A stretch of DNA of 64,000 nucleotides from Arbacia lixula (Eukaryota > Echinodermata > Echinoidea > Arbacioida > Arbaciidae). Of this stretch, positions 1-53,666 are shown one piece after another. A model generated the notes under the pieces. The model saw only the letters and a program-made list of their open reading frames with translations, was not told the origin of the DNA and ran no database searches. Positions within the stretch are counted from its first letter, which is position 1, and the number at the start of each line of letters is the position of its first letter. The DNA is taken from positions 33,040,498-33,104,497 of the forward strand of contig OZ022576.1 of NCBI GenBank assembly GCA_963669155.1, given 5' to 3'. Both the position numbers and the translations under genes were made by a program.

Positions 1-237
1 ATAATTGATTTGCTATATCAGTGGAGACATGTTAAATTCCTATAACTGTTTTCCTATATCAGTGAAGAGTCATTAAATATCTATAATTGGTTTCTTACAT
101 CAGTAGAGACTTGTTGAATAACTATAAATCTTCTCCTATATCAGTGGAGAGTTGTTGAATATCTATGACTGTTCTATATCAGTAGAGACTTGTTGAATAT
201 CTATAACTGTTCTCCTCTATCAGTGGAGACTTGTTAA
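1..237. repeat. 41-bp minisatellite made of splice-acceptor/exon-like units
   Basis: Units of the type TATATCAG then TGGAGACTTGTTGAATATCT. The AG/T junctions fall after 21, 62, 103, 144, 182 and 223 (41-bp steps, one of 38). The array continues after the inserted element into the real exon 1 acceptor at 962. It probably extends left of the window. Confidence 0.9.
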
Positions 238-962: not shown

Positions 963-1144
963 TGGAGACACGTTGAGCATCTACGATGGACTTGGTGCTG
1001 ACGATGCCAATCTCTTGGGGCAGTACTGCGCTGGTGAGCCTCCGGCTTTCCTGGAGTCGAGCGGCCAGGCCATGACGGTGATGTTTGAGTCTGCAGGAGA
1101 TGCCGCGGCCCATCAACGAGGCTTTGAGCTATCCTACGAGTCAA
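963..1144 (+). CDS. Exon 1: CUB domain, C-terminal half
   Basis: Encodes GDTLSIYDG, then GQYCAGE and RGFELSYES, the second half of a CUB domain (the usual IYDG...G.FC...S.G....F.S...G..GF...Y pattern). The acceptor is TATATATTAG and the donor is GTAATT. It enters in phase 2 and leaves in phase 1. The first half of the domain must lie upstream of the window. The acceptor and first 25 nt resemble the unit of the 41-bp array to its left. Confidence 0.85.
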
Positions 1145-4100
1145 GTAATTGAACTTCTTTAATTGTCCTTAACTCTTCATCTGCCATTTTTCTTTTCAGC
1201 ACCAATCGATAGTATACACATATATTCCTTAGAAGGAGGTCCGTTGACGTGTTATGTGTTTAAATTGGAAAGAGATATTGGATTCCAAGCAGCAAAAGGA
1301 AATAATTACATTTTAGTTCTCACCAAGACCTAAAACTTTAACTTCAGATTAACTTCAAGTTAACTTCAAGTTTTGAAAGTGAGAGGTTTTCACCTGTAAT
1401 TAAGGACCATGCAAACACACTATAATGGGTGATCCACGCTCATGGTTTCAATCTCTTTCAAATTTTGTTTTTGCAAAGGGCATTTTGCGAAGACAGATGT
1501 AATCTTGAATGGTATTTTGGATACAGAATATGACTACTATATAGAACGTGTGATATATGGCGTAGTGATTTCTTCTTTCAGTTGATGAGGCGCTTGGGTC
1601 ACGAGTGATATGGAGCGAGGTCAACGCGGAGACTGGGGAGGCGCGTCTGAACAGCGTCCCATCTGACCCAACGCTCATGATGACTCCACAGGGCACCCCC
1701 TTGGACTCCATCTCCACCAGCTTCTATTACCGCGTCCCCGCTGGTAACTGGACAGCTCTGGACACTAACTATGGCAACCATGAGACGGTGTGGAGTGCGG
1801 GGGACTTGAAGACCATTATCAAAGGTAGCCATAGCGATGCAGTTAAGAGTTTGTGATACTGGAACTGTTAGTGAATTTTGCATCTTTGTCAGCATGTTTT
1901 TACCTTATCATTGCTTTTTCTTTATTTTTAGCTTTTGTAATAGTTTCTTTCAGTAGTAATTTGAAATTGGAGTGAGATAATAGAAATGGGTTCTATCGTT
2001 TGTTGAACATAAGACTTTTCAATTTTGGCTATGTTATCTACTAGTTTAAATGTGCAATAGATATGAGGTGCAATGACAGGTCAAAGATGGTTGCACACCA
2101 TTATCAGTATGACCCTCATCATCATAATGATCATCTCTGAAGATCACTAATTATAGCAAGTCATTAATCACACTCCAGGAGAAGGGAGAGGGATATATAA
2201 ATGCTTAGCTTAACCTATAGCTCCCTATATTGCAATTCTCACACATAATCTTAGGGCGTGTTTATCATCTTTTCAGAATTTGAAACGCATTACCAAAGGC
2301 CTTTACGAATGCGTTTCCAAACGCCTTTTAAAAAACTGGTGCATTTATCAACTCAATCGCCCAAGTCGAAAACTGGCCTTGTCACTGCGCAGCTCTACTG
2401 CGCCGTTACACGTGCACTGTAGTTCAATAGTGTGCGATGGATGTTGTTTTCTTGGCGTGGCGCTCGTGTTTTCAGAAATGGGAAACACGTGGTTTAAAGT
2501 CGTTTCAAAACAGCTTTGCGTTGATCTCGCTTCTCTAAACACGTTTAAGATCGCACAAATTTGCGTGTTTCAAAACAGCTTTCCAAACCCCATAATCAAA
2601 ACACCTTTGCGTTTATCAACTCCCTGAAATGCGTTTAAAAAAATGTAAACGCTTTTGGAAACCTTAATTCTACCAAAAAACGAGTTGATAAACACGCCCT
2701 TATATCTCTAACAAACATTCAAGTTTTCATCTGACATCGTAAAAACGTTAGTGGAGAAAAATGTTCAAACTGGTCTCACAAACTTGTTTTTGCTTACTAG
2801 GCACGATGGGAACCAACAGAAAGGCAAAGGCCTACTTTGCGTGGACATCATCAGGGGTGCTGGGGATTGCTGTTGATTGGTTGACAGGCAACGTCTACTG
2901 GACAGATGTGTCTTATGATTGGATCATGATGTACAATGCTGACGGCTCGAGGGGAACTGTTGTCGTTGATGAGGGATTGGACATTCCCACAGGAATTGCT
3001 GTCCATCCATCCAGCGGGTATGATAATGGTTTATTGCCCTGAGCACTGCACGTGACCAAAGATAGCTCTCCTATATCTGGAAAAACTACTATCCGCCCTC
3101 CGAACTTTCTGACGTCACATTTTGTACTGTCCGTGACGTCAGAGGGCAGATATACTTTTCAAGAGGCGTCAATGTCCACGCTTCCGTGTTGTAACAGGCA
3201 CAACATACGCGATAATTTGTTTTTAGCTGCTTTTTGCGCATTAGTGGGCAGCAGAATTGTGCGCTCAGTGAACTCTAGCAGTGTTGCAGGGTTATATCCA
3301 GGAATCCTGCATGCAATCTTTTCTATGAAAGGCTCGATAATCCCTGTCCTTTTCAATAAGTGGCCGTCAGCTGTTCTTTTTGTCCAAAAGAAGTGTGCAG
3401 TCCTTTTCCTCTGATCATGGACCCTACTAGGGTCCATACTATAATCATATAACACTATAATACGTTGTGACATAATGAAACAAAAGACTGGATGGGCTAT
3501 TATTGAAACAGTGGCCTTTCTGGTCTTTTTAACCTCCGGATGGAAGTTTAAAGGCCCATCTGGTCTTTTGTCTAAAATATGCGACAGAGACAGTCAACAT
3601 GTTTTGACAAGACGCCTAAGTGAGCTTCCAATGAGATGTTGAATCAAGTGCTAAATCTTTTCACACCTTTGGATACTCATAAAAACATATATATGGAATT
3701 GAAAAGGTGCAGAAATATTATTTTCCTTATAAATACAAACAGTGACAGTGACTGTGCTCAAATTGGCTTCATAACTGAAGAAGTGATGTTATTTGTCTTT
3801 GATTCTCTGTGTTACCCTGACTCCCCCCCCTCCCCCCTTTCTCTCTGTCTCTGTGCAGATATTTGTTCTGGACAGATTCTGGCTCTGACCCAAAAGTGGA
3901 ACGAAGCAGTCTTGCCGGCAGAAACCGGATTGCACTGGCTACAACAAATGTGGTCCGGCCTGCTGGAATAACTATTGACTATGAAACTGGGTTGTAAGTC
4001 GGTATCCTATATTTTATTTCCTTTTACTATCCTGAGCTTTCCAGTCCTTATCAAGCGACAATTAAGTAATGGACAGGTCTTATATTTCTCACAAAATAGA

Positions 4101-7100
4101 AAAATATTTGGAAAATTAACAGGGTTCACACTCTGTATTGGCGTGACAGCAAATCTTTACCAACCACTTCCAAACTGTGCTCATTGAACTATGTAGAAAA
4201 ATTTCCTGAGCCGCTTGCGGTATGTTTTTACTCCGAGTAGGCAAACACATTGCACTCAATGGTGAGAATAAAAAAAATCATAGAAAGTCAATGTTTCAAT
4301 AGGGAATATCAATGGACTAGTCTCTCCCTAACTAGTGCTTCATCCACAATTATGTTATGACCTTCTCCTCGCAGAGTCTACTGGATAGACGCTGACCCCG
4401 CCAACAATCGAATTGAGATGTGTGACCTAGAGGGAGAGAATAGGAGAGCGCTGGTTCAAACCAACACAGACCGGGAGTTCTTTGACCTAACTATTGCAGG
4501 GGTAAGCTCTGTTTCCATTAGGATTCTTTCCTTTGTGGAGGTGTCGTGGTATAGTGGTTTTAAACTGTGACTGCAAATCCTAAGGTCCCCCAGGGATAGT
4601 GCACCCTAATATTAAGTTGGTTTTAATAAAAGGAGACACGTGAAATAAACATATTAGTGAAGGTTTGATGAAAATCCGTCGAAGTGTAAGAAAGTTATGA
4701 TCATTCAGAGTTTTGCTTCTGTGACGTCACATGCGAGATGTTCTCCAATATGTTGTGTGCAATTTTTTTCAAATAGATATGCATCCTTTTACCTGTGCAT
4801 TTGATACATCATTAGAAATACATGTACGTCTCTACCCATTCACCTGTATGAAAATAATCATTCCGTTGTCAAAAACAGAAAAAGAGCAATTTATGGAATT
4901 ATTCTGTACACAACATATTGGAGAGCACCTCGCATTTGAAGTCACAAAATTGAAATTTCAAAAGATCATAACTTTTTTATCCTTTGACAGATTTTGTCAA
5001 ACCTTCACTTATATATCACTTATATATTTCTTTCATATTTCTGCTTTTATTAAAACCAACTTATCTTCAGGGTGAACTATTCCTTTAAGCAAGTCACTTG
5101 ACTCTTGATATGCGCCATTCTAGAACAAGTCATAAGCATAAATCCTATAAAGTAGTATTTTGCCCAGTACATAAATATGTACATGGTTGCCTGGTCAGGG
5201 GTGAGCAATTATATTAATGGATTTGACCCAGCACAGATATCATGCCATATGTTAGCTCTAGGAGAATGATAGGTGACAATGAACTCTTTACTCAGTAGGC
5301 CGCACACCAATCTGTGGCGCATTGATTTGGAGGGTGCAGGTTGTCTGTGGTCTGAACGCAAATTGTTGCATATTAATGGCTATAACTTTTGAATAATTTT
5401 TAGAATGTTATGCAAGAAAGTTATAGAGATAAATGCTCTTTCTGGTCTTGTTGATTTTTTTTCTTCAAATTTTGGAAAGATCAACTACAAATGTACTGTA
5501 ACGTTGATGTTGCTTATCATTACTCGCGTGGGAAACTTTTGACTTCTGACATCATCTTATCATCATCTTATCATTCTTCATTTTGAATGGTAAAACATGT
5601 CATACCTGTTCCACTTGTAACAAAGGGCAAGATGTAAGCTTTCTATTGAAACCAGAAACCCCATTCTTCTGGAGCCAAAAGGGAAGCAAACTTGAGTTTG
5701 TAAAGAGGTGGTTTCCTCAATAAATTAAAGAGCTCGCTCACAATGAGTGATCACTCTAGAGACAGTAATCGTTAATTTCAGTGGTGGCCACTTGTGTTGA
5801 TACTCTCTAATGTTCTATTATTGATTTTCTTCTACTGCTGACTCAAGCGTAAAAGACTCATGTGGGTCTGTGCAACTGTGCACGTAGGCTGATCCGCCGA
5901 TCGTGCAAATGTGCATATAAACCACATAAAAATCTCCAAATCATCTTCAATAATGATATGATTTTGAAGTTACAAAATTGCTATAAAAACAAAAAAAGAA
6001 TATAAGCATTACCACAGCAATCAAGATTAAAATGATGGTACTTCCTCTCCCTTTCAGAGCTTCATTTATGCGACTGCAAAGAAAGATAAGAAGATCCTTA
6101 TTTTCCTGAAGGAAGTGGGTGGTGATCTTATGACCCTTAACCTGGAGTATGTGCCATCCAATATTATGACATACGCCCCAGATGTGCAGCCTCCATCGTA
6201 CTGTAAGTTTGTGCTTTACCCCCCCCCCCCCCCCCTCCCACACACACACACACATATGGTCTTTATATGATTGTTGTTTAATGTTCGGTCATTGTTTGTT
6301 TCTTGTTTTTGTTGGAACATCATTAAAATTCACATCAGCCACAATAAATTGTGAATTTTACAAGCCCATTACCCACATGTATCTTCTAATTAGAATGAAA
6401 CAATTGTAGGTTCTTACTTGAATTTGCTATAGATAACGACATAAACTCAACAAACCTTGGAACATGTAACTAAGTAAAAGTGAAACAATTTCATCATATA
6501 GAGCTGCTAAAGGCTACACTATTCAAGCCCTTGTAAAAAAAATATTGACAAGCATGGTTTGGTGAGCCAACATGCTCTTTGATTTATTGGAATATTTGGC
6601 CTCGGTAGAGAAAGTCCGAGGTCAACAAACTTCTGAAGTAAAAACTAGGTGACAGAATATGTGTCAGCATGGTGTGAATGGGCAATACAAAGCAAAGACT
6701 ACTTGATCATGATCATGTGATATTTCGTTCTTGTTTGCAGCCCCTTGTAGCAGCAACCCATGCAGTTACCTGTGTGTTGGGGGTGGGCCAAATGGCTACA
6801 CATGTATGTGTGGCACGGGCAGGCTCCTCACAGCAGATGGAAGGACCTGTGAAAAAGGTAACAATAAGCTATATTAACTGGTATGGAAATTTGACATCCA
6901 AGGGTGCATTGAGGGCAAATATGATGACAAGGGAATAGTAAAACATCCAAAGAATGTCACAGTTTACCCCCCTTCTAGTATACTAGGTGGTGAAACAAAC
7001 AAACAAAATCACTCAAAGTCAAAATTTGAATGAAGCTGATATTGTAAAATAAGTCACAGGATTTCAAGTTTTGTGGCAACAGGTTTCATTTAGAATGCCT

Positions 7101-25100: not shown

Positions 25101-28100
25101 TAGACAGAAGGCCCCTCTATTCAGTTAATCATTAACTCTTAACTTGCCGGGGGTAAAACCCCTCTGTGCCGGATGTTTTCTATATTACAGTTTTCTCTAT
25201 TACAGTTTGGTCGCAAATTTGCGACAGCGGTATCTTTATAATACTGGTAACAGTGATGATACCTTTATTTATATGCTTGCCCTGACAGTCTTCCAGTCTA
25301 AAATTGTATGTCCTCTGAGAATGTGTAAGCCAAATTATGAATTTCATCTCTTTGTAACACCCCTTTGCATGTCTTGATCAGAACAAGATCCTACGTCGGA
25401 GCATCTCTCATCCTGCGGCAACAATCTGGGCTTCTACGATAGACCTGTGGATCGGGAGCTCGCTGGGGGGGACTCGGTTGGGGCCAATTGCAGAGTCAGT
25501 GACCCAGAGCTCAACATCGCCTGGTACAAGGATGGCCGCAGACTGAGATCAGGTGACCCACTCTGTCCTTATTGTTGTGTCCCTGATGGTAGGGAGACAA
25601 TCACACAGAGGTTCAGGTTGGGGCGTCTTCATTAGCCAGATATGGCGAAATAGCTAGCTAGTTCTTGGGTTTTGGGTAAAATTCCTGAATGGTCAGAGGT
25701 CAAAGGCCAATGAACTTTGAAAAATTGGCTAAAATTGCCCCCAATTTGATATTTTTCACAATAAATCCCAATCCAATTATGCATTTCAAGAAAACATGGC
25801 ACATAGATGAATCACAAGGATACAAGGATGGATTTAGACAGACTGGTTAGATTGGAAGTCAAAGAAGTAAGAGGTCAAAGGTCAAATGAACATTGCCAAA
25901 GCCTGCTCACCCATGGAAAAACAGAATATGATATTTTCATTTCACATAGAAATTCACAGGAACATTCCCAACCAAACAAACAGATTTTCTGAGAATAATC
26001 TAGATAGGGCAAGCAAAGAGGCGGATGCATATTTATCGACTGTGTGGCATTCGACTTGCTCTAGTTCACAATAAATCCAAATCCAAAAGCGCATTTCCAA
26101 CCAAACATGGTGCAAAGATGGATCACTACTTGGGGCTAGACTGGTGACATTTTTGGTGAAATTGCTGAAAGGTCAGAGGTCTAAGGTCAATGAACTTTGC
26201 CAAGAATTACCTGGTACAAGGATGGCCGTAGACTGAGATCAGCTAGGTGACCCACTTTGTCCTTATTGTTGTGTCCCTGATGGTAGTGAGTCAATCACAC
26301 AGAGGTTCAGGTTGAATTAGCCTTCACAATCATGCAACAAACAGCCCACATTAGGGGCATATTCATTAGCCCGATGTGGCAAAATAGCTAGCTAGATCTG
26401 ATTGGGTTTAGCCTAGCCACATCACGAAATGGCTAGCTATTTGCGTCTTCATTAGCCAGATTAGGCGAAATAGCTAGCTATTTGGTCGAGAAAATTTCCC
26501 AAGAAATCTTGGCCTAGATAGAGCTAGCTCGCAGCGTCTTTATTAGCCTGAAAATTTCTCAATCCCAGCGTGCATCAGCGCGCACTGAGGCATTGTTTAC
26601 TTTAGATTTTTATACGTGCGTGGATGGGAGCTCACAACCGAAGCCATGCGGTCATGGCCTATTCCCGTCGCACACGGCGTATGTTTGAACAGCGAGATAA
26701 TTTATGCGTCCCAAGTTTCGAGCTAATGAAAACGCGATTGCAACTTCAGGCTAGTTCGCCAGATCAACAAACTAGCTCGCTATTTCGTCTTATCGGGCTA
26801 ATGAAGAAGCACATACAGAGAGAAAACCAGCCCCTGCAAATGAAAAATAAACATCCCATGTGAAAATAAGTTTTTCTTCTACAGTACAGGCCAAAAGTTT
26901 GGGGCCACCCTCAGAATTAACAGAAAATCCTACAAAAACAATGCATTCTGCATTCTGCATTCAAATTTATTGATACTGCATGGAATATGGAAGTTCCATG
27001 ACATCACACACGCATGTTTTCCAACAGGAATTACAGCTTAATTACTCATTTTGCAGAGATTTTTAGCTCACACTTTGGTTTCATCAAAATACCCTCCATG
27101 TGCCTGATCACTGCTTTACAAATTCTTGGCATGCGATCTACAAGTTCTACAAGATGTACAAGTATGATGCAGACGATCATTCCCATGCAGATTTTAAGCA
27201 TTCAAACATCTGCTTTTCATAGCTGGGGGAGGAGAAGAATAGTGACATCAGAAGCAGAAGACAAACATATCGTTGTTTCCAGCAAGAGGAATAGGAAGAT
27301 GACTGCTTGAGATATAAGGGCTGATGTGAATTCTACCAGGGAACAGCCCGTCTCGCTGACTACAGTGAAATGCAGGCGAAGAGCAGCTGGACTGTTTAAT
27401 GCAGTTTTTTGTAGGATTTTCTTTTAATTCTGTTGTAATGCAAAACTTAGTTTAGTGTGTTCTATTACGCTTGCAGAATACTGTGTCCTTCCGAATTGCT
27501 TTAATTCACTTATATATCTTATATCCAGCTTATTTCTACTTCCACCTCCTTTATATACTTCCAGGCAGTGTGGATGGTATCTTCATAGACTTCAACAACC
27601 AGCTGATAATTCCAGACTTTGAGCAAGTTCATCATGGTCATTATGCCTGTGTTGCCCTCTCTGGCCAACAAGAGTGCTTGAGGGCTGAAGCAAACATCAG
27701 TAAGTATCCTCACTCTCTGCTCCATGGTCAGTGTCCTCATGAGTTCAGGAGTGTTGACAGGCTTTCTTTATAGGCCATTACATGGTGCTTGCACAAATCT
27801 CCCCACCAAATGGACATATTTTGTCTATGTGCTATGCAAGGGTTGAGTCCAGTCGGACAGTCACACTTCCTAAACTATATTCTGTAGGAAGAGATGTACA
27901 CTATCTCTCTAAATGCAGCATGTTTAAACAAGTACTGAAGTCTTTACATTGCTGATCTAAAGCTTGAAATTGTCTTTTATCCCTGCAGCCTTTGATCCGC
28001 TGAGCTACTTCCTCCACGCACCTCAGACGGTGTACGTCCAAGAGGGCAGTGATCACCTGTTTCAGTGCCAGCCTAAGGTTGCCACGGACTACGTCACTTG

Positions 28101-31100
28101 GTTAAGAGTCGATGACCAATTGGAAGAAGGCATTGTAAGATTTCATCTCAAGAACTCTCCACTATCATGGCAATGTATAACATGAGTGCATCCTAGCTTG
28201 CTTGTCAGTATTGTAATGAGTTTATATTTAATATGTTATCTTTTCCATCCAATTTGAGCATAAATGTGTTGTGATATTTTTATAGCCTTTATTATATCTT
28301 GTTACTTTTGTAAGAAGTTAAAAACATGATTAGTGCATGGTCTCATCAGTGTAAAGTTTGTGAATCAATGACAGTGGATGGCTTTGATAGCATTAGTCGT
28401 AGTACATGTGAAGTTTCCACGAAGCAAGAGAGTGGAAGCTCTGAGTTTATTTCCTATTTAAAGTATTGTGTCATTATCATGAGCCAGCAGGAACCTGGGC
28501 CTTGCTGCATAAAACCTACCATTGATGGTTACTTTGCTACCATTAGCAATTTCTATGGAAACATTGGATTTCATTGGCTGTCAAGTGATGTTACCATTGT
28601 AGTTACCATTGACGGCAGAGTTACCATAGATAGTAAGTTTTACGCAACAGGGCCCTGGTGGGTGGAGATTGTGCCTGCCTGGCAAGCATTAGATACAGGC
28701 TCAAATCCCCGTCTGGGCCATGTTGCATAAAACTTACCATTGATGGTAACTTTGCTATCAATGGCAACGTATATAGGAGCATTGTTGTCGAGCCTTGTTA
28801 TCATTGATGGCAGAGTTACCACTAATGGTAAGTTTTTTGCAACAAGACCCTGGTCTTTTTTCTATATATTTATTTTTACCATGTACTAAAAAGAGTAGTT
28901 TCTTTGCCGACCTTTCAGAGAGGAAATAACCTGCATCTGCAAGATATTACGGAGGCTGATGAGGGGAGCTACACCTGCCTCATTCGTGATGAGTGGGGGC
29001 TGGTGAAAGGGAAGGCGCATGCCAGTTTGTTTCTCCTAGACCCACCACAGCTGAACATTTCAAGTGGTGAGAATCTGACCTGAATATGCCTCAGTCTTAA
29101 CCCTCTCCATGCTGTAGGGGTTCAGCCCGCCCAACGAAGAACATGATTTGATCCTAAAATTATGCATTTGAAGTAAAATCTACAGAAAATGGTGCACACA
29201 TGACTCACTGTAGTATTTCAGCTTATCGTGCACTGCAAGGTATGGCATGTGTGCACTATGTACGGACTGAATGCACAAATGAATCATGGCTCAGAGTTAC
29301 AAAAAGTAAAGTATCTCTGTAATTTTGGCTATCCTGCTATTGAAGAAAAGCATTTTCATATATATGTTTCTTCAGGTTTGGGGGTTCCAAGTAATGTAAA
29401 TTGTTGGTATATCTAATGATTTAGCCTAATCTTATCAGCTTGCAGTGATTCAGTAACAAAACTATATCTGAAATCTTCTTTAGCTATTCTCTGTCCCTCT
29501 CACCCCCCATTTTCTCCTCTGTTTATTTAATGCAGTCGAGTTAATACCCAATAAATAACAAACAAGAAACTAGCATTATGTATAGGTCTCTTCTCTTCTA
29601 TTTACTTCCCGTGGTGAAGTGGCGGGCGTGCAGTACCATGGCACCGCACGCCCTTCACTTCACCGAGGGGACCAATAGATTCCATAAAGATCCCGAATAA
29701 AGATCATGAAATATTTGTTTTATATCCTTCATTGATATATTCTTTGTTCATTAAATGAATCCTTACCATAGACCTTGTGATAGTGTCCATGCTCTAAGCT
29801 CTGAACTTTAGGAGCCCAATTCATTTGGTTTTTATTTCCTGCGGCTTGAGCAAGCCAATGGCAATTCAAGTTGCGCCTCAGCCGCAACACCGCGGGAGTT
29901 TCCCAGGCACGCCCAATGATTTTTCACTAAAACGCAAAAAAGCAGCTGGAAAGAAATGTATCGCGTAGATTTTGCGTGTCGCGCATTTACCGGGATGAAC
30001 TGATTTCGAGACAGAGAGAAAAGGGGCGACTATTTTTGTAAAGACGTCACAAAATATTACCTCTTTTCTCTGTGACGTCATGAAATGGTACCTTTTCTCC
30101 CCTCTGAGCTTCTTTCGCTCTGTTTAGTTGAACTATTTGTGGACATGAGACACACTTTTAACCAATCAATGAACTGGAAAATATTAATGAGGGATAACTC
30201 TTTGTGTGCCGTTGTTGTCCTCCTTGCAGTGTGTGGAACCATAACCTACCATCGGCAACAGCAGGGAGAGCAGCTACCTGAGCAGCCTACGGAGCAGCCT
30301 CAGGGGGAATCATCCTACTCTATGGGATTTGCCAGTGATGGCGATGAAAACGAAAACGAAAACGAAAACCAGACGCCGTACATTGTAGGTGGGTCTGATT
30401 CAGAGTACGGGACTGCACCCTACATGGTGAGGATCTGGGTCCGGGAGAGGCAGCTTTTCACGTGTGGAGCTGCCCTGCTAGACCAGAGGTGGGTCATCAC
30501 AGCCGCTCACTGCATCCGCTTCAGGGATGAGCACAATTACCAGGCCAGCGACATCTTGCTCTATCTTGGGGACCATGACACACTCGCAAACGAGCCAACT
30601 CAGTTGATTAGGGAGGCGGTTGAGATCATCATTCATGAGGACTTCAATGATCAAAACTTTGACAGCGACATTGCACTGATCCGTATGGAGCCCCCCCTTC
30701 GGAGTTTTAACCCGTACATCCGACCCATCTGCCTGCCTCCTGGCGCCTTAGCAACTCGCCTCATCAACCAAGACACGCAGGGAAGAGTAACCGGATGGGG
30801 CCAAATGTCATTCAGAGGAGCAACGCCACGATTCCTCAAAGAAGTGGAGCTACCAGTAGTGGATTGGGCAACTTGCGAAGATGCAAACATCTACAACATA
30901 ACCCAAAGAATGTTCTGCGCGGGATACGCTACCGGCGAGCGGGATGCATGCAGGGGGGACAGCGGCGGGCCTTTCGCTATCCGGCACACGGACGGCCGCT
31001 GGTATCAGTTGGGCATCGTCAGCTGGGGTGTGAGGTGTGGAGAGTCCTATGGCTTCTACACCAATGTGGCTCAGTTCCTGCACTGGATCCGGTCCAAGAA

Positions 31101-33600
31101 TGTCACGGTGACTGCATCGCCCAGCGTTCAGGAGGCCTTCTCTGGAGTGAACGATTCTGCTGGGGAGCTGGCCTTTGCCAGGAGGTCGGACAGTGAGGTG
31201 AACGTGGCCGAGGGGTCTGAAGTCAACCTGGAGTGTATCCCTAACAGGGTCAATGCAGTCGTCCAGTGGTATGCACATGGCATGGCGATTGGACCAGGTC
31301 AGTAAAGGAACTATTAAAGTAAAATCAATTATTGTTGTCACTCCCATAGGATATTAAATGGAGGTCTCATGAAATGGAGAGCCACACCCAATACAAATAG
31401 AACGAGAAATACTTGTGTATAAGTATGAGGTGGTCTGTCAATGCAAATTCATGCAAAGAGCTGACAAATGCACGGCGATACCATCTAGTCATTCAAAATC
31501 AGGGGCAACGCTGAAGAAAGCTCATGGCGCACCTACAACATACTTACTTGTCGGTACGTTTCCGGGAACAGTGCAAACCTGGCTCCCATTTCTTAGTAGG
31601 AAACTTGGGAACCGGAGTAAATATGTTAAGATAAAGAAGAGTAGTGGTAAAGAATACATATCAGGACCTGTAATCTTAGCAGAATGGTATAGGCTACATG
31701 AACTTCATTAAGGTAATTGATACTGATATCTCATTATTTTACCTTTAATTATACAACATTGAAATTATCAAATTTGCTAACTTGGTAACGATATATTGGA
31801 TACCCTTTATGATTTTAAAGTGATCAGGGCCCCGTAACATAAGGGTTTGCGATCAATCACAAATTTGAAAGACAAATTCTGATTGGTTACAGGTCAGTCT
31901 TTTGAACAAAAAGCACATGCAACAATGATGTTGATTGGCCATTACCATTTTGCAATCGATCGCAAACCTTCATGTTATGGGGCCCAGAAGGTCACAACAC
32001 AAAAGAGCAGAAGGCCACAAACCGCTGTTCGTTACTGTTTCCATTTTGATTTTGCAGGTACTTCTCTGACTGATGGAGTGCGAATCACTCCTAGCGGGCT
32101 GACCTTCCACTTCCCAAGTGTCCAGACCTCCTACGGTGGCACCTACAAGTGTGTCGTATCTCTGAGTGACGATGAAGGAGAGCAGACCATTGAAGCCAGC
32201 TTCCAGCTTGGTAAGTTTCTGAGACACCTCTTAATAAAATATGGTAGCCAACATTTCAAGCCATTCTAGAATAGTACAATGACAGGAGACAGTGATGTGA
32301 TTTGAATTCTAACAAATAGTTTGCAAATATTTCATGATCAGGAGGGATCTTTTGGAATCTATTTGCTCCCAGGGTGAAGTGGAGGGTGTGCAGTACTATT
32401 GGTACCGCACGGCCTTCACTTCACCGAGGGGACCAGTAGACTCCACAAAAATCCTGAAGAAAGATCATGAAATATTTGTTTTATAGCGTTCATTGATATA
32501 TTCGTTGTTCAATGATTAAATCCTTACCATGGACCTTGTGATAGTGTCCATGCTCTAAGCTCTGAATGTTAGGAGCCCGATTCATTTGTTTTGGATTTCC
32601 TGCGGCTTGAGCAAACCAACAGAAATTTAAGTTGCGCCTTGGCTGCAACATTGCAGGAGCTCCCGTAGCGGGCCCAATGGTTTTCTGCTAAAACGCAAAA
32701 AAAGCAGTTGGAAAGAAATGCGTGTTGTGCATTTACCCGGGATGAACTGATATCGAGACAGAGGGAAAAAGGGGACTATTTTTTTCATGATGTTACGAAA
32801 AAGCTTGTTTTTTTCTCTGACGTCACAAAATAGGCTTTTCCTTCCCTCTGAGCTTCTTTCACTCTATATAGTTGAACTATTTGTGGTCATGTGACACACT
32901 TTTAATCAGTTAATGAACTGGAATATATCAATGAGAGAAAGAATCTTTAAAGGAGCTGTGAAGTGAAAAATTATTGAAATCACAAATTCATGTGAATTTC
33001 ACATTTTATGAATCTTGAATATTTACCAAATGTCATGCAATTTCATTTACACCATGTTACCACCTCCAACCCCACTAAAAGGACATTTTTTACTTGAAAC
33101 CAAATTGCTTGGAAATCGAAAACATTACTGTACTACGTAGAGCGGAAGTGATGTAAATCTGTAGACTCGATCGTGAGCTAGCAGCCTACGTGCACTATTT
33201 TTGAACGCTACAATGCATATGAGAGCGCTGAAATTTGTACCGAAAAATGTCTTCAGGTGATGAAATCACCTTCGATCTTGACTTTAAAATTCTGGATGAA
33301 GAGAGCAGTGGTAGTGATAGTGATGAAAGCCGAAATCTGAGAATTTGACGTTGAAAATGTTGAAAAGTTGCTGTTGACATAGGGACATAGGGGCATAGGG
33401 GAGATTAAAAAAACTCAGCTCGAAACCCCCCCCCCCCCCCACACTTTCAAAAATCCTGCGTACGTGCCTGTTTACAAATAATGGAACAACTCCATTTTGC
33501 CTGCTCTGTGGGTGACATATCAGCCCCGTTGAGGAAGTTCCTGCATTACATGTTGTGTTCTCCATTTCTTTTTTCTCTCCAAGTTGTGGTACCATCCTAA
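963..33600 (+). CDS. Mosaic secreted protein, CUB-(YWTD propeller-EGF)x3-CCPx2-Igx2-trypsin-Ig (27 exons, 5' partial)
   Basis: Join of the 27 exons listed separately; 5,268 nt from the first whole codon to TAA, giving 1,755 residues. Residue ranges, numbered from position 964: CUB C-terminal half 1-60; propeller 1 61-349; EGF1 350-388; propeller 2 389-669; EGF2 670-712; propeller 3 713-981; EGF3 982-1022; CCP1 1023-1081; CCP2 1082-1143; Ig1 1144-1245; Ig2 1246-1343; Cys-containing linker 1344-1394; S1 protease about 1395-1635; Ig3 about 1665-1755. Propeller-EGF modules in LRP5/6 and LRP4 bind extracellular ligands. CCP, Ig and CUB modules also mediate binding, so a substrate-targeted extracellular protease is the natural inference. 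No transmembrane segment follows the last Ig, so secretion is likely. The upstream CUB exon(s) and signal peptide are outside the window. The model could be two transcripts rather than one (see exon 25), but all 26 introns join in frame. No standard gene name recognised. Confidence 0.85.
1582..1824 (+). CDS. Exon 2: propeller 1, blades 1-2
   Basis: Phase 1-1 exon after a TTCTTCTTTCAG acceptor. It reads [16 protein letters not shown] (blade 1) and [15 protein letters not shown] (blade 2), diverged YWTD-type blades. The same position and phases recur in exons 8 and 14, which open propellers 2 and 3. Confidence 0.8.
2254..2699. mobile_element. PIF/Harbinger-like MITE, copy 1
   Basis: 446 bp with perfect 14-bp inverted ends GGGCGTGTTTATCA and direct TTA flanks at 2251-2253 and 2700-2702, the PIF/Harbinger target pattern. 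The interior is rich in AACGCGTTT-like motifs and GGCCTTT. Confidence 0.85.
2801..3017 (+). CDS. Exon 3: propeller 1, blade 3
   Basis: Contains [15 protein letters not shown] and [12 protein letters not shown], textbook LDL-receptor class B sequence. Acceptor TTGCTTACTAG, donor GTATGA, phases 1-2. Joins exon 2 as [11 protein letters not shown]. Confidence 0.92.
3859..3993 (+). CDS. Exon 4: propeller 1, blade 4
   Basis: Reads [20 protein letters not shown] and [11 protein letters not shown]. Acceptor CTCTGTGCAG preceded by a long pyrimidine tract; donor GTAAGT; phases 2-2. Confidence 0.93.
4375..4501 (+). CDS. Exon 5: propeller 1, blade 5
   Basis: Reads [20 protein letters not shown] and FFDLTIAG. 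Acceptor CTCCTCGCAG, donor GTAAGC, phases 2-0. Confidence 0.93.
4502..6057 (+). other. Intron 5: one fold-back element, otherwise unremarkable
   Basis: Besides family A copy 1 I see only AT-rich unique sequence and no supported exon. Confidence 0.6.
4581..5089. mobile_element. Fold-back element family A, copy 1
   Basis: Ends resemble GGGATAGT-CACCCT and AGGGTGAACTATTCC; inside, GGAGACACGTGAAA and a TGACGTCA-containing core flanked by inverted GAGAGCACCTC. Diverged copy. Confidence 0.7.
6058..6202 (+). CDS. Exon 6: propeller 1, blade 6
   Basis: Reads [20 protein letters not shown], a degenerate last blade (FIYAT in place of YWTD). Acceptor CCTTTCAG, donor GTAAGT, phases 0-1. A C-rich then CA-rich tract starts 20 nt after the donor. 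Confidence 0.88.
6741..6857 (+). CDS. Exon 7: EGF-like module 1
   Basis: A symmetrical 1-1 exon with six cysteines ([13 protein letters not shown]...YTCMC...RTCEK), the LRP-type EGF module that caps a YWTD propeller. Acceptor TTGTTTGCAG, donor GTAACA. Confidence 0.94.
6858..8064 (+). other. Intron 7: AT-rich, no supported exon
   Basis: A partial repeat related to the 54387 element starts near 7530 (ACTGTAAAAGTG, TTCGCG-). Nothing else recognised. Confidence 0.5.
8065..8337 (+). CDS. Exon 8: propeller 2, blades 1-2
   Basis: Phase 1-1 exon. [14 protein letters not shown] is blade 1 and [18 protein letters not shown] is blade 2. Acceptor TTCTCTATTACAG, donor GTACTT. Structural equivalent of exons 2 and 14. 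Confidence 0.92.
8469..8622 (+). CDS. Exon 9: propeller 2, blade 3
   Basis: Reads [19 protein letters not shown] and [12 protein letters not shown]. Acceptor TTTTGGGCAG, donor GTGAGG, phases 1-2. The 3.2-kb tandem array starts about 20-50 nt beyond the donor. Confidence 0.94.
8640..11830. repeat. 3.2-kb tandem array in intron 9
   Basis: Units of about 60-85 bp built from AAGACATTGTTTAACCCTTT, GACTCCACTG-TTAGCTGTGG and TATTCAGGGTGACTTT. A higher-order copy of about 414 bp is nearly identical at 8919 and 9333. Another partial copy starts near 10785. No ORF. Confidence 0.95.
12288..12434 (+). CDS. Exon 10: propeller 2, blade 4
   Basis: Reads [20 protein letters not shown] and [12 protein letters not shown]. 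The acceptor GTGTATAG is preceded by a (CT)n run at about 12251-12278 that supplies the pyrimidine tract. Donor GTAATT, phases 2-2. Confidence 0.92.
13131..13248 (+). CDS. Exon 11: propeller 2, blade 5
   Basis: Reads [20 protein letters not shown] and YFDIALYK. Acceptor TTTTCCTTAG, donor GTAAGG, phases 2-0, as in exon 5. Confidence 0.92.
13586..13736 (+). CDS. Exon 12: propeller 2, blade 6
   Basis: Reads [19 protein letters not shown] and [12 protein letters not shown]. Acceptor CGTGGTCTAG, donor GTGAGT, phases 0-1, as in exon 6. Confidence 0.92.
14219..14347 (+). CDS. Exon 13: EGF-like module 2
   Basis: A 1-1 exon with six cysteines ([14 protein letters not shown]...YICMC...KTCFS). Acceptor TTTTCGCAG, donor GTAAGG. 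Confidence 0.94.
14739..14984 (+). CDS. Exon 14: propeller 3, blades 1-2
   Basis: Reads [17 protein letters not shown] (blade 1) and [19 protein letters not shown] (blade 2). Acceptor CCTTTCTCAG, donor GTACGT, phases 1-1. A degenerate copy of its last 14 nt plus donor flank recurs 187 bp downstream. Confidence 0.93.
14971..15270 (+). repeat. 187-bp duplication of exon 14 end and donor
   Basis: ATACGGAGTGGAAC occurs at 14971 (real, followed by GTACGT) and 15158 (followed by ATAAGT). Homology continues through GGCTA-TTCACTTTGCGTTC. Confidence 0.88.
15367..15840. mobile_element. Fold-back element family A, copy 2
   Basis: TTAA at both ends, then AGGAATAGTTCACCCTGAA and its diverged inverse. 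Interior inverted arms (GGAGACACATGAAA / TTTCATGTGTCTC; GGAGGTGCTCTCCC / GGAGAGCACCTCCC). No ORF. Confidence 0.8.
16742..16901 (+). CDS. Exon 15: propeller 3, blade 3
   Basis: Reads [19 protein letters not shown] and [12 protein letters not shown]. Acceptor TGCTTCTCCAG, donor GTGAGT, phases 1-2. Its last 53 nt and the following intron are tandemly duplicated. Confidence 0.94.
16849..17112 (+). repeat. 132-bp tandem duplication across the exon 15 donor
   Basis: Copies 16849-16980 and 16981-17112, only a few differences. Each contains the last 53 nt of exon 15, the GTGAGT donor and a TTTTTGCAG acceptor-like end. Confidence 0.95.
16971..17033 (+). CDS. Potential extra in-frame 63-nt exon created by tandem duplication
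   Basis: The 132-bp duplication places a TGTTTTTGCAG acceptor at 16970 before a second copy of the exon 15 end, which keeps its GTGAGT donor. The segment is 63 nt, enters and leaves in phase 2 and has no stop; it would add 21 residues including [16 protein letters not shown]. The intron to exon 15 would be only 69 bp. Use in transcripts is unknown, and the propeller is complete without it. Confidence 0.3.
17627..17754 (+). CDS. Exon 16: propeller 3, blade 4
   Basis: Reads [20 protein letters not shown] and [10 protein letters not shown]. Acceptor CTTTCCACAG, donor GTTAGA, phases 2-1. The equivalent exons in propellers 1 and 2 leave in phase 2, so the layout diverges here. Confidence 0.93.
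18018..18290 (+). CDS. Exon 17: propeller 3, blades 5-6
   Basis: Reads [19 protein letters not shown] (blade 5) and [17 protein letters not shown] (blade 6) in one exon; the other propellers split these blades by a phase-0 intron. Acceptor AATTGTCTAG, donor GTCTGA, phases 1-1. The donor region is repeated twice more at 85-86 bp spacing. Confidence 0.93.
18283..18480 (+). repeat. 86-bp repeat of the exon 17 donor region, three partial units
   Basis: TCAG/GTCTGATTCCAATCAC recurs with junctions at 18290, 18376 and 18461. Units share CAGTAACAAGT and CCCAACTT-TGT. Confidence 0.9.
18792..19265. mobile_element. Element family D, copy upstream of EGF3 exon
   Basis: TTAA at 18788-18791 and 19266-19269; ends GCCGTCCCTTTTG and AAAGGGGACGGGC; central palindrome TTTTTCGTACTACGAAAAA. 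The right TTAA ends 29 bp before exon 18. Confidence 0.8.
19299..19421 (+). CDS. Exon 18: EGF-like module 3
   Basis: A 1-1 exon with six cysteines ([14 protein letters not shown]...RTCMC...GSCIP). Acceptor TTTCTCGCCAG, donor GTATGA. A TTAA-flanked element ends 29 bp upstream of the exon. Confidence 0.94.
19985..20285. repeat. GATA/GACA-type microsatellite
   Basis: Imperfect GATAGATGGATAGACAGATA-like repeats, with a longer duplicated unit (ACAGATAGGTAGGTAGATAA at 20045 and 20111). Confidence 0.9.
20330..21290. repeat. Dispersed repeat with five internal about 150-bp units
   Basis: Starts GCCTCCGCCACGAAGTGGCT and CCGTCCGCCCGTCCGTCC, then repeats of GGTCAGAGGTCAAAGGTCAA, AACATGGT-CA-AGATGG and CACTACTTGGGG. 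Fragments recur at 25690-26215. Intron 18. Confidence 0.8.
22116..22292 (+). CDS. Exon 19: CCP/sushi module 1
   Basis: One CCP per 1-1 exon. Six cysteines ([26 protein letters not shown]) instead of the usual four, with the G-W signature before the last Cys. Acceptor CTGGTTTAG, donor GTACAT. Confidence 0.9.
   Translation: MHQHCAPWSLTRAASLKTACLYPGGIVQCSAMLALSPPWMPSAARPLGAGIWTSTPSV
22931..23740. mobile_element. Nested element with 30-bp inverted ends
   Basis: About 810 bp, higher GC. Ends CTGTCCCACTATTGCG and, inverted, CTGTCCCACTACTGCG, continuing GCAAGCGTTG on both sides (27 of 30 match). No coding capacity recognised. Confidence 0.75.
23741..24279. mobile_element. Element family D, nested copy
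   Basis: Inverted ends of the type GTCCGTCCCTTTT / AAAAAGGGACGGGC and a central palindrome TTTTTCGTACTACGAAAAA. Same family as 18792-19265. Confidence 0.75.
24644..24829 (+). CDS. Exon 20: CCP/sushi module 2
   Basis: Six-cysteine CCP ([36 protein letters not shown]). Phases 1-1; acceptor TTGCTCGCAG, donor GTTGGT. Confidence 0.92.
25382..25552 (+). CDS. Exon 21: Ig domain 1, N-terminal half
   Basis: Contains the B-strand Cys and C-strand Trp ([19 protein letters not shown]). Acceptor CTTGATCAG, donor GTGACC, phases 1-1. A copy of its last 32 nt plus about 65 nt of intron lies at 26211. Confidence 0.88.
26211..26315 (+). pseudogene. Duplicated exon 21 fragment with intron flank
   Basis: CTGGTACAAGGATGGCCG to the donor, then intron sequence to AGAGGTTCAGGTTG, 690 bp after the original (25521-25619). 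Four extra bases (CTAG-like) sit exactly at the former exon-intron junction. Confidence 0.88.
26350..26818. mobile_element. Fold-back element, ATTAGCC-GATGTGGC type
   Basis: Inverted arms TCATTAGCCCGATGTGGC / TATCGGGCTAATGAAG with repeated AAATAGCTAGCTA. A partial relative begins at 25624. Confidence 0.65.
26882..27436. mobile_element. Tc1-like non-autonomous element (probable)
   Basis: Left end ACAGTACAGGCCAAAAGTTT resembles Tc1-family termini. Inner inverted arms AACAGAAAATCCTACAAAAA / TTTTTTGTAGGATTTTCTT. No transposase ORF; the outer right end is not clear. Confidence 0.5.
27565..27699 (+). CDS. Exon 22: Ig domain 1, C-terminal half
   Basis: Reads [20 protein letters not shown], the E-F strands with D/H-x-G-x-Y-x-C, then [10 protein letters not shown]. 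Acceptor ATACTTCCAG, donor GTAAGT, phases 1-1. Confidence 0.92.
27989..28134 (+). CDS. Exon 23: Ig domain 2, N-terminal half
   Basis: Reads [19 protein letters not shown] and [10 protein letters not shown]. Acceptor TTATCCCTGCAG, donor GTAAGA, phases 1-0. Confidence 0.92.
28490..28855. mobile_element. Pair of short fold-back units with ACCATTGATGGTAACTTTGC motifs
   Basis: Two related units ending GGGCC(T/A)TGTTGCATAAAAC- and its inverse, CTACCATTGATGGTTACTTTGC inside. Intron 23. Confidence 0.55.
28919..29066 (+). CDS. Exon 24: Ig domain 2, C-terminal half
   Basis: Reads [20 protein letters not shown] and [14 protein letters not shown]. Classic DxGxYxC F-strand. Acceptor GACCTTTCAG, donor GTGAGA, phases 0-1. 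Confidence 0.92.
29600..30196. mobile_element. Element family C, copy next to protease exon
   Basis: Shares GGTGAAGTGG-GGGCGTGCAG, CTTCACTTCACCGAGGGGAC, a TGACGTCA-containing core and the end GAACTGGAA-ATATTAATGAG with copies at 32360 and 62745. Ends 33 bp before exon 25. Confidence 0.75.
30230..31297 (+). CDS. Exon 25: linker, complete trypsin-type serine protease, first half of Ig 3
   Basis: One 1,068-nt exon. A linker starts VCGTITYH and includes an acidic ENENENEN run. The S1 domain starts IVGG (30382), with catalytic His in TAAHC (30508), Asp in SDIAL (30667) and Ser in GDSGGP (30961). An Asp six residues before the Ser predicts cleavage after Lys/Arg. Cys pairs fit chymotrypsin-fold 42-58, 168-182 and 191-220; the ICLPP cysteine probably bonds the linker Cys, as in modular complement-type proteases; trypsin's 136-201 pair is absent. 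The residue before IVGG is Tyr, not Arg/Lys. The protease is followed by VNLECIP and VQWYAHG, the first half of Ig 3. The acceptor TCCTCCTTGCAG sets the start. The open frame extends back to 30085 and includes an ATG at 30187 followed by a hydrophobic stretch, so an alternative start is possible. Donor GTCAGT, phases 1-1. Confidence 0.93.
31827..31985. mobile_element. 159-bp MITE, GGGCCCCGTAACATAAGG type, copy 1
   Basis: Inverted ends GGGCCCCGTAACATAAGGGT and CCTTCATGTTATGGGGCCC. Lies 72 bp before exon 26. Confidence 0.8.
32058..32210 (+). CDS. Exon 26: Ig domain 3, C-terminal half
   Basis: Reads [20 protein letters not shown] and TIEASFQL. Acceptor GATTTTGCAG, donor GTAAGT, phases 1-1. Confidence 0.92.
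32360..32940. mobile_element. Element family C, second copy
   Basis: Same orientation and interior as the 29600 copy, including TGACGTCA and GTTGAACTATTTGTGG. Lies in the last intron. Confidence 0.75.
33584..33600 (+). CDS. Exon 27: terminal coding segment and stop
   Basis: After a strong TTTTTTCTCTCCAAG acceptor, phase 1 gives VVVPS then TAA, so the protein ends ASFQLVVVPS. This is a fitting Ig G-strand, which is why I chose this short exon. Only 17 nt are coding. An unseen alternative 3' exon cannot be excluded. Confidence 0.7.
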
Positions 33601-34145
33601 AGCGCATCCTTCGAGATCCCAAGGTGGTGATTGAATCTCTCATCGGAACATTTCGCTACGCCTCTCATCAGATGCTACCACAGCTATTTGCAAAGGAATA
33701 TTCGTAAAGAAATTATACAGTTGATACAATTAAACCAATAATGTGAATGGATGGTTTTAGATATGGAAGTGATGATCAAGCTTAATAAATATGACTGCAT
33801 TCTTTTATTAAACTTTGCTGGTTTTAGACAACATCATGGAGATATTTCTTGTATTAACTGTGTCAGTAGTTTATGTGCTTGCATAAAGATTTATAACGTA
33901 CATGTATAACATACAGTAATTGTTTCAGACCTGAAATCTATTTAGGTAGCAGCCACTTTAATACACCATATTGGACCACAGAATGCATAAACTAGATGGC
34001 ATACACTCATTGCTGAGGAGATGCCTCTGTCAGTGTCATTCCATGTATGCATAATTTTATAAAAATGTTGAGCAATATTCCTTTCCAATGCTCCTGAAAG
34101 TGTTAAGAGTGTACGCTAGATGGACGTGATTTAAACAAATAAAGA
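33601..34145 (+). other. Probable 3' UTR of the mosaic protease gene
   Basis: AT-rich sequence after the stop with AATAAA at 33784 and 34138; the 383-bp duplication repeats the second signal at 34521. Real ends cannot be set from sequence alone. A 40-codon open stretch here in another frame is treated as chance. Confidence 0.45.

Positions 34146-53633: not shown

Positions 53634-53666
<33 letters not shown>

What the first reader, a model, noticed from the sequence alone, without database searches (positions are those of the whole stretch)
963..33600. A mosaic protease: CUB, three LRP-type propeller-EGF modules, CCPs, Ig domains and an internal trypsin domain in one frame
27 exons splice in one 1,755-residue frame. 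The front half looks like an LRP5/6-type ectodomain, and the back half like a modular complement-type protease with Ig domains on both sides of the catalytic domain. I know of no standard family with this order. A catalytic domain tethered to three ligand-binding propellers would be a targeted extracellular protease, possibly in immunity, matrix or Wnt/BMP-type signalling. Function is inference.
Basis: partly seen in the sequence, partly recalled or inferred. Interest (0 to 1): 0.9.

Follow-up and report, generated by a model that had tools for sequence, protein, structure and literature searches.

The report
Sea urchin LRP-type mosaic serine protease
The stretch encodes one intact, apparently secreted sea-urchin-type protein in which a clotting-factor-like protease is joined to three receptor-type binding propellers; relatives exist across echinoderms but appear unnamed and unstudied.

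Summary
Confirmed. The protein aligns end to end (58.8% over 1,769 columns) with Strongylocentrotus purpuratus LOC593350, across the doubtful E24-E25 junction, so it is one gene. The 5' end (signal peptide, half of the CUB) lies outside the window.

Order: CUB - 3 x (YWTD propeller-EGF) - 2 CCP - 2 Ig - trypsin - Ig. Orthologues in urchins, sea stars and sea cucumbers are labelled "uncharacterized" or "LRP-like". The C-terminal Ig was seen only in one urchin class. The constant part is an Ig-Ig-Cys-linker-protease core, shared with CUB-, SRCR- or TSP-fronted proteases of other phyla.

Correction: the catalytic domain resembles thrombin/factor IX-X more than C1s. It is intact, trypsin-like, and should stay disulfide-tethered to its binding chain. 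Here its activation site has Tyr where orthologues have Arg or Lys.

Best reading: a propeller-targeted secreted zymogen, probably in defence or clotting; function is inferred. A sister relation to vertebrate prothrombin is suggested but not established.

The parts
963..1144 (+). E1, 3' half of CUB domain (5' half and signal peptide lie upstream of the window)
   Evidence: Pfam CUB 1.8e-05; 52% to P0001 residues 74-133
1582..4501 (+). E2-E5 (1582-1824, 2801-3017, 3859-3993, 4375-4501): propeller 1, first part
   Evidence: Ldl_recept_b 2.1e-20
6058..6202 (+). E6: last blade of propeller 1, phase 0-1
   Evidence: tblastn P0001 2.6e-10; splice sites
6741..6857 (+). E7: EGF 1
8065..13736 (+). E8-E12 (8065-8337, 8469-8622, 12288-12434, 13131-13248, 13586-13736): propeller 2; same phase pattern (1-1, 1-2, 2-2, 2-0, 0-1) as propeller 1
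14219..14347 (+). E13: EGF 2
14739..18290 (+). E14-E17 (14739-14984, 16742-16901, 17627-17754, 18018-18290): propeller 3, LRP4-like, keeps the Asn equivalent to LRP6 N185 (WPNGL)
   Evidence: site named in PMC7585440 (passage)
19299..19421 (+). E18: EGF 3
22116..22292 (+). E19: CCP 1 (weak acceptor)
   Evidence: 46% to P0001 1097-1155, 2.4e-13; acceptor score -2.2
24644..24829 (+). E20: CCP 2
   Evidence: 46% to P0001, 3.4e-17
25382..27699 (+). E21-E22 (25382-25552, 27565-27699): Ig 1
27989..29066 (+). E23-E24 (27989-28134, 28919-29066): Ig 2
   Evidence: best I-set and ig stretches of the model
30230..31297 (+). E25: VCG linker cysteine, activation segment ending TPY|IVGG, whole protease domain in one exon ([29 protein letters not shown]), first half of Ig 3
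   Evidence: Pfam Trypsin 1.5e-54; P0001 1.2e-98; residues
32058..32210 (+). E26: second half of Ig 3
   Evidence: 49% to P0001 1780-1828
33584..33600 (+). E27: last residues VVVPS and stop
   Evidence: P0001 ends ...FQLQVTGA at the same place
33784..33789 (+). AATAAA polyadenylation-type signal after the stop
29639..30194 (.). dispersed repeat in intron 24 that supplies the misleading upstream ATG (MNWKILMR)
   Evidence: repeat families D2 and D3, second copy 32400-32938

Best explanation
One gene of an animal close to sea urchins (species not given; judged from its nearest relatives) encodes a secreted mosaic zymogen of about 1,830 residues, 1,755 of them in the window. Shown: the order CUB - 3 x (YWTD propeller-EGF) - CCP - CCP - Ig - Ig - protease - Ig, a complete trypsin-like active site, and conservation of the whole order in urchin orthologues. 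Inferred: CUB and propellers hold the zymogen on a ligand (matrix, microbe or cell surface); an unknown protease cuts at Tyr|Ile before IVGG; because the linker cysteine (VCG) pairs with Cys122 of the protease domain, the active chain stays tethered, as in two-chain clotting and complement proteases, and cleaves Arg/Lys substrates at the bound site. The likely setting is a defence or clotting cascade in coelomic fluid or matrix. Evolution (inferred): an ancestral CUB-Ig-Ig-protease gained an LRP4-like cassette between CUB and Ig in the echinoderm line; urchin class A later gained a third Ig and a faster-evolving protease.
For: Model. Same order in S. purpuratus P0001/P0002 and Diadema P0003/P0004; protease-last forms P0005, P0014, P0016, P0019, P0021, and P0006/P0007, whose models lack CUB and propeller 1. 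Ig-Ig-CG-linker-protease core colinear in 9 aligned members. Tree of 60 protease domains: ambulacrarian clade of 17, 98/99; WIN with P0001, 100/90; its hemichordate and crinoid members have CUBs in front. Cysteines 42-58, 168-182, 191-220 plus 122. Triad, Asp189, Ser214, Tyr225 (position names recalled). Hydrophobic leaders in P0001, P0005, P0016, P0021; no 19-residue stretch of WIN above 1.49. Propeller 3 keeps Asn/Ala at the LRP6 N185/A201 positions in WIN, P0001, P0003, P0021.
Against: No expression, binding or enzyme data; no paper seen names it. In WIN the ligand site survives only in propeller 3 (propeller 1 Ala, propeller 2 Ser), and Acanthaster P0014 has His there. The other 12 LRP-type rows all have Arg or Lys at P1, so activation here is unknown. 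Resemblance to thrombin is not very diagnostic: a hemichordate factor-C-like control also lists thrombin, beside MASP-2, at lower score, and the seven-cysteine pattern also occurs in factor-C-like, factor-B-like and one TMPRSS9-like row.
Confidence: 0.6

Rival explanations
1. Two genes: an LRP-like ectodomain gene ending before E25, and a separate protease-Ig gene starting at the ATG in the E25 frame, whose first residues look like a signal peptide.
For: The E25 frame is open upstream with [23 protein letters not shown]; a 576-residue S. purpuratus model, P0239, is only part of Ig 1, Ig 2, protease and Ig.
Against: The ATG is inside a dispersed repeat; the hydrophobic part is the pyrimidine tract and AG of an in-phase acceptor; orthologues of 1,833-1,873 residues are contiguous across the junction; P0239 starts inside Ig 1 and looks truncated.
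Confidence: 0.03
2. A complement-initiating protease in the MASP/C1r role, with propellers in place of lectin partners.
For: CUB and CCP modules; relatives P0035, P0187, P0243 are annotated MASP1-like; AU test does not reject grouping with C1s (p 0.085, 0.18).
Against: For all 9 LRP-type rows the better clotting-factor score is 176-217 bits and the best C1s score 116-155; C1s rows lack Cys42/58; module order differs from C1r/C1s/MASP (recalled). MASP sequences were not in the tree.
Confidence: 0.17
3. A Wnt/BMP or synaptic-matrix modulator: propeller 3 captures NXI-type ligands such as Dkk, agrin or nidogen and the protease processes them.
For: LRP4-like propellers; Asn at the NXI site in propeller 3 of 6 of 7 compared proteins, with Ala beside it in 4 of those 6.
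Against: No transmembrane span or signalling tail; in one species pair the class A protease diverges faster than its propellers, more like defence than signalling, though relaxed constraint would look the same. Other LRP6 contact residues (E51, D52, E73) seem not to be kept, judged against an LRP6 sequence recalled, not called.
Confidence: 0.15
4. A catalytically dead binding protein.
For: Non-basic P1 at the activation site here; fast divergence of class A protease.
Against: Triad, Asp189, GDSGGP and SWG all kept; no frame damage.
Confidence: 0.05

Closest known systems
S. purpuratus LOC593350 / LOC115919137 and Diadema proteins (orthologues without a name of their own)
   Same: Whole order including C-terminal Ig; 58.8% (P0001) and 52.8% (P0003) over the whole window protein
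   Different: Arg or Lys at the activation site; here Tyr
LRP4/LRP5/LRP6 receptors
   Same: YWTD propeller-EGF modules
   Different: Three instead of four propellers, no LDL-A repeats, no membrane span, a protease in the C-terminal part
Prothrombin and factors VII/IX/X/protein C
   Same: Protease domain: best sequence and structure matches, same cysteine pattern as prothrombin, Tyr225
   Different: No Gla, no kringle; CUB, propellers, CCP and Ig instead
C1r/C1s/MASP
   Same: CUB and CCP modules, probable tethered two-chain design
   Different: Order, Ig modules, protease subtype (C1s tested, MASP not)
CUB-Ig-Ig-protease proteins of chelicerates, hemichordates, crinoids (some annotated MASP1-like)
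   Same: Ig-Ig-CG-protease core; within the same 32-row protease clade
   Different: No propellers

Membership tests
Ig-Ig-serine protease core family (my working name) | Two Ig domains, then a CG linker, then protease, colinear | tested here: met
   alignment of 9, with C199, G200 and catalytic residues invariant
Ig-Ig-serine protease core family (my working name) | Protease domain in the same clade | tested here: met
   17-row ambulacrarian clade 98/99; 32-row clade that also holds prothrombin 95/84; amphioxus members outside, unresolved
Echinoderm LRP-Ig-Ig-protease subfamily (my working name) | CUB plus three propeller-EGF modules before the Ig-Ig-protease core | tested here: met
   single origin not rejected, p 0.65
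LRP4/5/6 | Four propeller-EGF modules (recalled for LRP5/6; four LRP4 propellers) | tested here: not met
   three, here and in P0001
LRP4/5/6 | LDL-A repeats | tested here: not met
   no PF00057 in the model nor among the precomputed domains of P0001
LRP4/5/6 | Transmembrane segment and cytoplasmic tail | tested here: not met
   highest 19-residue hydropathy 1.49, inside propeller 2; protein ends after Ig 3
C1r/C1s/MASP | CUB-EGF-CUB-CCP-CCP-protease order (recalled) | tested here: not met
   order
C1r/C1s/MASP | Protease of C1s type | tested here: inconclusive
   bits and cysteines differ; AU test p 0.085 and 0.18
Prothrombin / vitamin K-dependent proteases | Gla domain, kringles or Gla-EGF | tested here: not met
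   no PF00594 or PF00051 in the model nor among the precomputed domains of P0001
Prothrombin / vitamin K-dependent proteases | Protease domain of this type | tested here: inconclusive
   best hits thrombin; prothrombin in one clade with the Ig-proteases 95/84, but prothrombin with FVII/IX/X/PC not rejected, p 0.37
Active S1A protease | His57, Asp102, Ser195, Asp189 and IVGG start | tested here: met
Active S1A protease | Cleavable activation site | not testable with these tools
   TPY|IVGG; activating enzyme unknown

The most novel reading that the evidence does not exclude
The Ig-Ig-protease family is the invertebrate sister group of the catalytic chain of vertebrate prothrombin, and the echinoderm members are propeller-targeted 'proto-thrombins': the same catalytic chain, aimed by CUB/LRP modules instead of Gla/kringles, with repeated shifts of the activation site to Tyr/Phe giving different triggers.
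Probability: 0.25. Interest if true: 0.85.

Novelty: new variant of a known kind. Interest (0 to 1): 0.6.

Why it matters
A conserved echinoderm protease family sits in databases as 'uncharacterized' or under LRP receptor names, so studies that count urchin or sea-cucumber Wnt co-receptors by annotation may count proteases. The family joins a clotting-type catalytic chain to LRP-type ligand capture, and its core, found here in several bilaterian phyla, offers a testable outgroup for the origin of prothrombin: the one survey I looked into (PMC9643190, passages and section 13) lists as non-vertebrates two tunicates, a coral, a fly and a horseshoe crab, no echinoderm or hemichordate.

Tried and rejected
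Candidate exon 1200-1322: rejected, no usable donor. Short E8 (8188): replaced by 8065. Search for the missing exon by motif and by a probe: failed; found only with an orthologue. Two-gene model: rejected. Common origin of the echinoderm LRP-Ig-protease with the unnamed propeller-CCP-Ig-proteases P0068/P0072/P0121/P0147/P0311: AU p 0.002 against one clade, so the combination seems to have arisen twice, unless protease parts were exchanged. Prothrombin with the Ig-proteases: favoured (95/84), but the conventional grouping is not rejected (p 0.37). 'Closest to prothrombin rather than factor X': not supported by similarity, since the two scores are close and change order between rows; for Tachypleus P0035 factor IX tops the list. 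Amphioxus Ig-proteases fall outside the clade, unresolved. Left out of alignment A1: P0022 (four Ig domains) and P0005, both cut. Hemichordate P0144 has Ig-protease first and LRP modules after it: different order or a fused gene model; kept in the tree, not counted as a member. Missing from the tree: MASP, plasmin, matriptase and other S1A families.

Literature: ten searches, seen as listings, except PMC7585440, PMC10097642, PMC10714614 and PMC9382459, passages only, and PMC9643190, passages and section 13. None of what I saw names this architecture; the library lacks most subscription journals.

Full report
WHAT IS THERE. I rebuilt the gene from the sequence. Three-frame translations gave domain-like pieces; splice scoring gave acceptors and donors; a first chain was joined. 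tblastn with the S. purpuratus protein P0001 then found a missing exon at 6058-6202, and a last 17-base exon was placed at 33584-33600. The final model has 27 exons, 963-33600, AG before and GT after each as required, all phases matching, 1,755 residues and a stop. Pfam on the model before the last two exons were added finds CUB, Ldl_recept_b, EGF of the FXa_inhibition type, Ig and Trypsin. Sushi was not reported at E<=0.001; the two CCPs rest on the cysteine pattern by eye and on colinearity with P0001, which carries PF00084. P0001 matches 26 of 27 exons in order, 24 of them with E below 1e-9.

ONE GENE OR TWO. The doubt was E24-E25. The in-frame ATG upstream of the protease lies in a dispersed repeat at 29639-30194 whose second copy is at 32400-32938; what looks like a signal peptide is the end of that repeat plus the pyrimidine tract. 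The acceptor at 30230 is the best-scoring and in phase. P0001, P0002, P0003 and P0004 align over the whole model, 50.7-58.8%. The C-terminal Ig and the short tail are also in P0001. AATAAA follows at 33784. Downstream, on the other strand, lie pieces of a plexin gene. I take it as one gene.

RELATIVES. The first protein search (7,991 candidates scored, 251 hits, 120 listed) gave echinoderm orthologues named 'uncharacterized' or LRP1-, LRP2-, LRP4-, LRP5- or LRP6-like. By the sequences fetched they fall in two kinds: class A with an Ig after the protease (P0001-P0004 and the window) and those ending with the protease (P0005, P0006, P0007 of urchins; P0014, P0016 of sea stars; P0021 of a sea cucumber and the unnamed P0019 like it). 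P0006 and P0007 as modelled lack the CUB and propeller 1. Sea stars lack the CCPs and sea cucumbers have one, by reading. So 'Ig on both sides' was seen in one urchin class only. S. purpuratus P0001, P0002 and P0006 lie on contigs of the same length, as do Diadema antillarum P0003 and P0005, which suggests clusters.

THE CORE. The same search listed CUB-Ig-protease proteins of chelicerates and a sea star, Ig-proteases of amphioxus and an SRCR-Ig-protease of a nemertean. Of 11 cores cut out, nine from five phyla were aligned, from Ig 1 to the end of the protease: they are colinear at 446-488 residues, with the CG of the linker invariant. Two were left out: P0022, which has four Ig domains, and P0005. 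Further searches (117 hits, all listed; 7,967 candidates scored, 4,589 hits, 120 listed) added hemichordates, a crinoid, Lingula and Tubulanus. What changes is the front: CUBs, SRCRs, TSP1, or CUB plus propellers. The simplest history is an LRP4-like cassette placed between CUB and Ig in the echinoderm line (inference).

CATALYTIC TYPE. All 60 shown of 558 solved-structure matches for the window's protease are thrombin or prothrombin; likewise the 60 shown for Patiria P0016; for Tachypleus P0035 factor IX comes first, then thrombin. A C1s-like control listed C1s, C1r and MASP-2 first, but a factor-C-like control mixed MASP-2 and thrombin at lower scores, so the top hit alone is weak evidence. 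Pairwise scores put all 9 LRP-type rows nearer to clotting factors (176-217 bits) than to C1s (116-155), without choosing between prothrombin and factor VII/IX/X/protein C. Cysteines: the nine LRP-type rows and all five prothrombins share seven; all four C1s rows lack 42 and 58; four of five factor VII/IX/X/PC rows carry an extra pair. But the same seven also occur in the factor-C-like, factor-B-like and one TMPRSS9-like row, so the pattern excludes C1s and does not single out prothrombin. A 60-row tree puts prothrombin in one clade with the Ig-proteases (95/84), and the window with P0001 (100/90) inside an ambulacrarian clade (98/99); amphioxus Ig-proteases stay outside, unresolved. AU tests: prothrombin with the other clotting factors not rejected, p 0.37; all LRP-types (with two nested holothurian rows) one clade, p 0.65; LRP-types with the unnamed propeller-CCP-Ig-proteases rejected, p 0.002; Ig-proteases plus prothrombin plus the other clotting factors one clade, p 0.55; with C1s, p 0.085 and 0.18. 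A predicted model of P0239, not of the window, mean pLDDT 75.9, pTM 0.58, has thrombin as 49 of the 50 listed fold matches by title or by another call; the title of 3egk does not say.

ACTIVE SITE AND ACTIVATION. The window has [24 protein letters not shown] and YGFYT. Position numbers and their meaning (Asp189 for Arg/Lys, Tyr225 for the sodium-binding type) are recalled. Ser195 and Ser214 are both AGC. The segment from the linker VCG to the cut ends in TPY and holds a single Arg, 43 residues before the cut. The other 12 of 13 LRP-type rows (the partial P0239 counted) have Arg or Lys there. Across the 40 rows, seven have Tyr or Phe (window, Antedon, two amphioxus, Lingula P0253, Tubulanus, Lineus), two have Ser or Asn, and 31 are basic, counting P0069, where my pattern misplaced the site and I read it by eye. 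So aromatic sites recur. Horseshoe-crab factor C is also cut after Phe (recalled, not checked).

WHICH PART EVOLVES FAST. In S. purpuratus against Diadema, class A (P0001-P0003) gives propeller 2 67%, propeller 3 63%, protease 47%; class B (P0006-P0005) gives 61%, 57% and 75%. In this one species pair, then, the protease diverges faster than its propellers only in the class with the extra Ig. This fits shifting targets or inhibitors, but relaxed constraint is not excluded.

LIGAND SITE. PMC7585440 (passages) names LRP6 N185 and A201 in the NXI-binding region. Propeller 3 has Asn and Ala there in the window, P0001, P0003 and P0021; Asn and Gly in P0005 and P0006; His and Ala in P0014. Propellers 1 and 2 of the window do not; of the others, propeller 1 of P0021 does.

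MECHANISM. Shown: order, frame, active site, conservation. Inferred: secretion (leaders in orthologues), tethering by the linker cysteine, targeting by propellers, defence or clotting role. I put 0.6 on the whole reading, most of the doubt being about the role.

KNOWN OR NEW. Ten literature searches (listed under Tried and rejected) showed no paper naming this architecture among what I saw. A survey of clotting-protein origins (PMC9643190, section 13 read; species list in passages) reported a coral protein as the best match for the prothrombin trypsin domain, with no echinoderm or hemichordate in its list. I call it a new variant of a known kind: mosaic S1 proteases are known, this assembly is not described as far as I could see.

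Noticed in passing
window 44014-63427, minus strand: Pieces of a plexin cytoplasmic region (Plexin_RBD 1.1e-16; three Plexin_cytopl pieces, each below the Pfam cut-off), a gene tail to tail with the protease gene (coordinates worked out from residue positions).
   Followed up: partly
window 1-235, 16849-17112, 18282-18488, 26206-26241: Small duplications of exon edges of this same gene: a 41-base array that looks like the start of E1, two 132-base copies of the end of E15 with its donor, 2.4 copies of an 85-base unit starting at the last bases of E17 with its donor, and a fragment of E21 in the intron. They could act as decoy splice sites.
   Followed up: no
window 8660-11805: About 47 copies of a 65-base satellite fill most of intron 9.
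   Followed up: no
P0144, Glandiceps talaboti: Hemichordate protein with Ig-protease first, then CCP and LRP modules: reversed order, or two genes fused in the model.
   Followed up: partly
P0032, P0036, Branchiostoma: Ig-Ig-protease followed by EGFs and a Fic domain (PF02661): probably a gene-model fusion, otherwise a remarkable protein.
   Followed up: no
P0068, P0072, P0121, P0147, P0311: Proteins of unnamed sources with propeller-CCP-Ig-protease order that do not group with the echinoderm family (p 0.002): apparent second origin of the same combination.
   Followed up: partly
P0003 and P0004, Diadema: In these class A proteases the SWG motif reads TGG, which should change substrate binding.
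   Followed up: no
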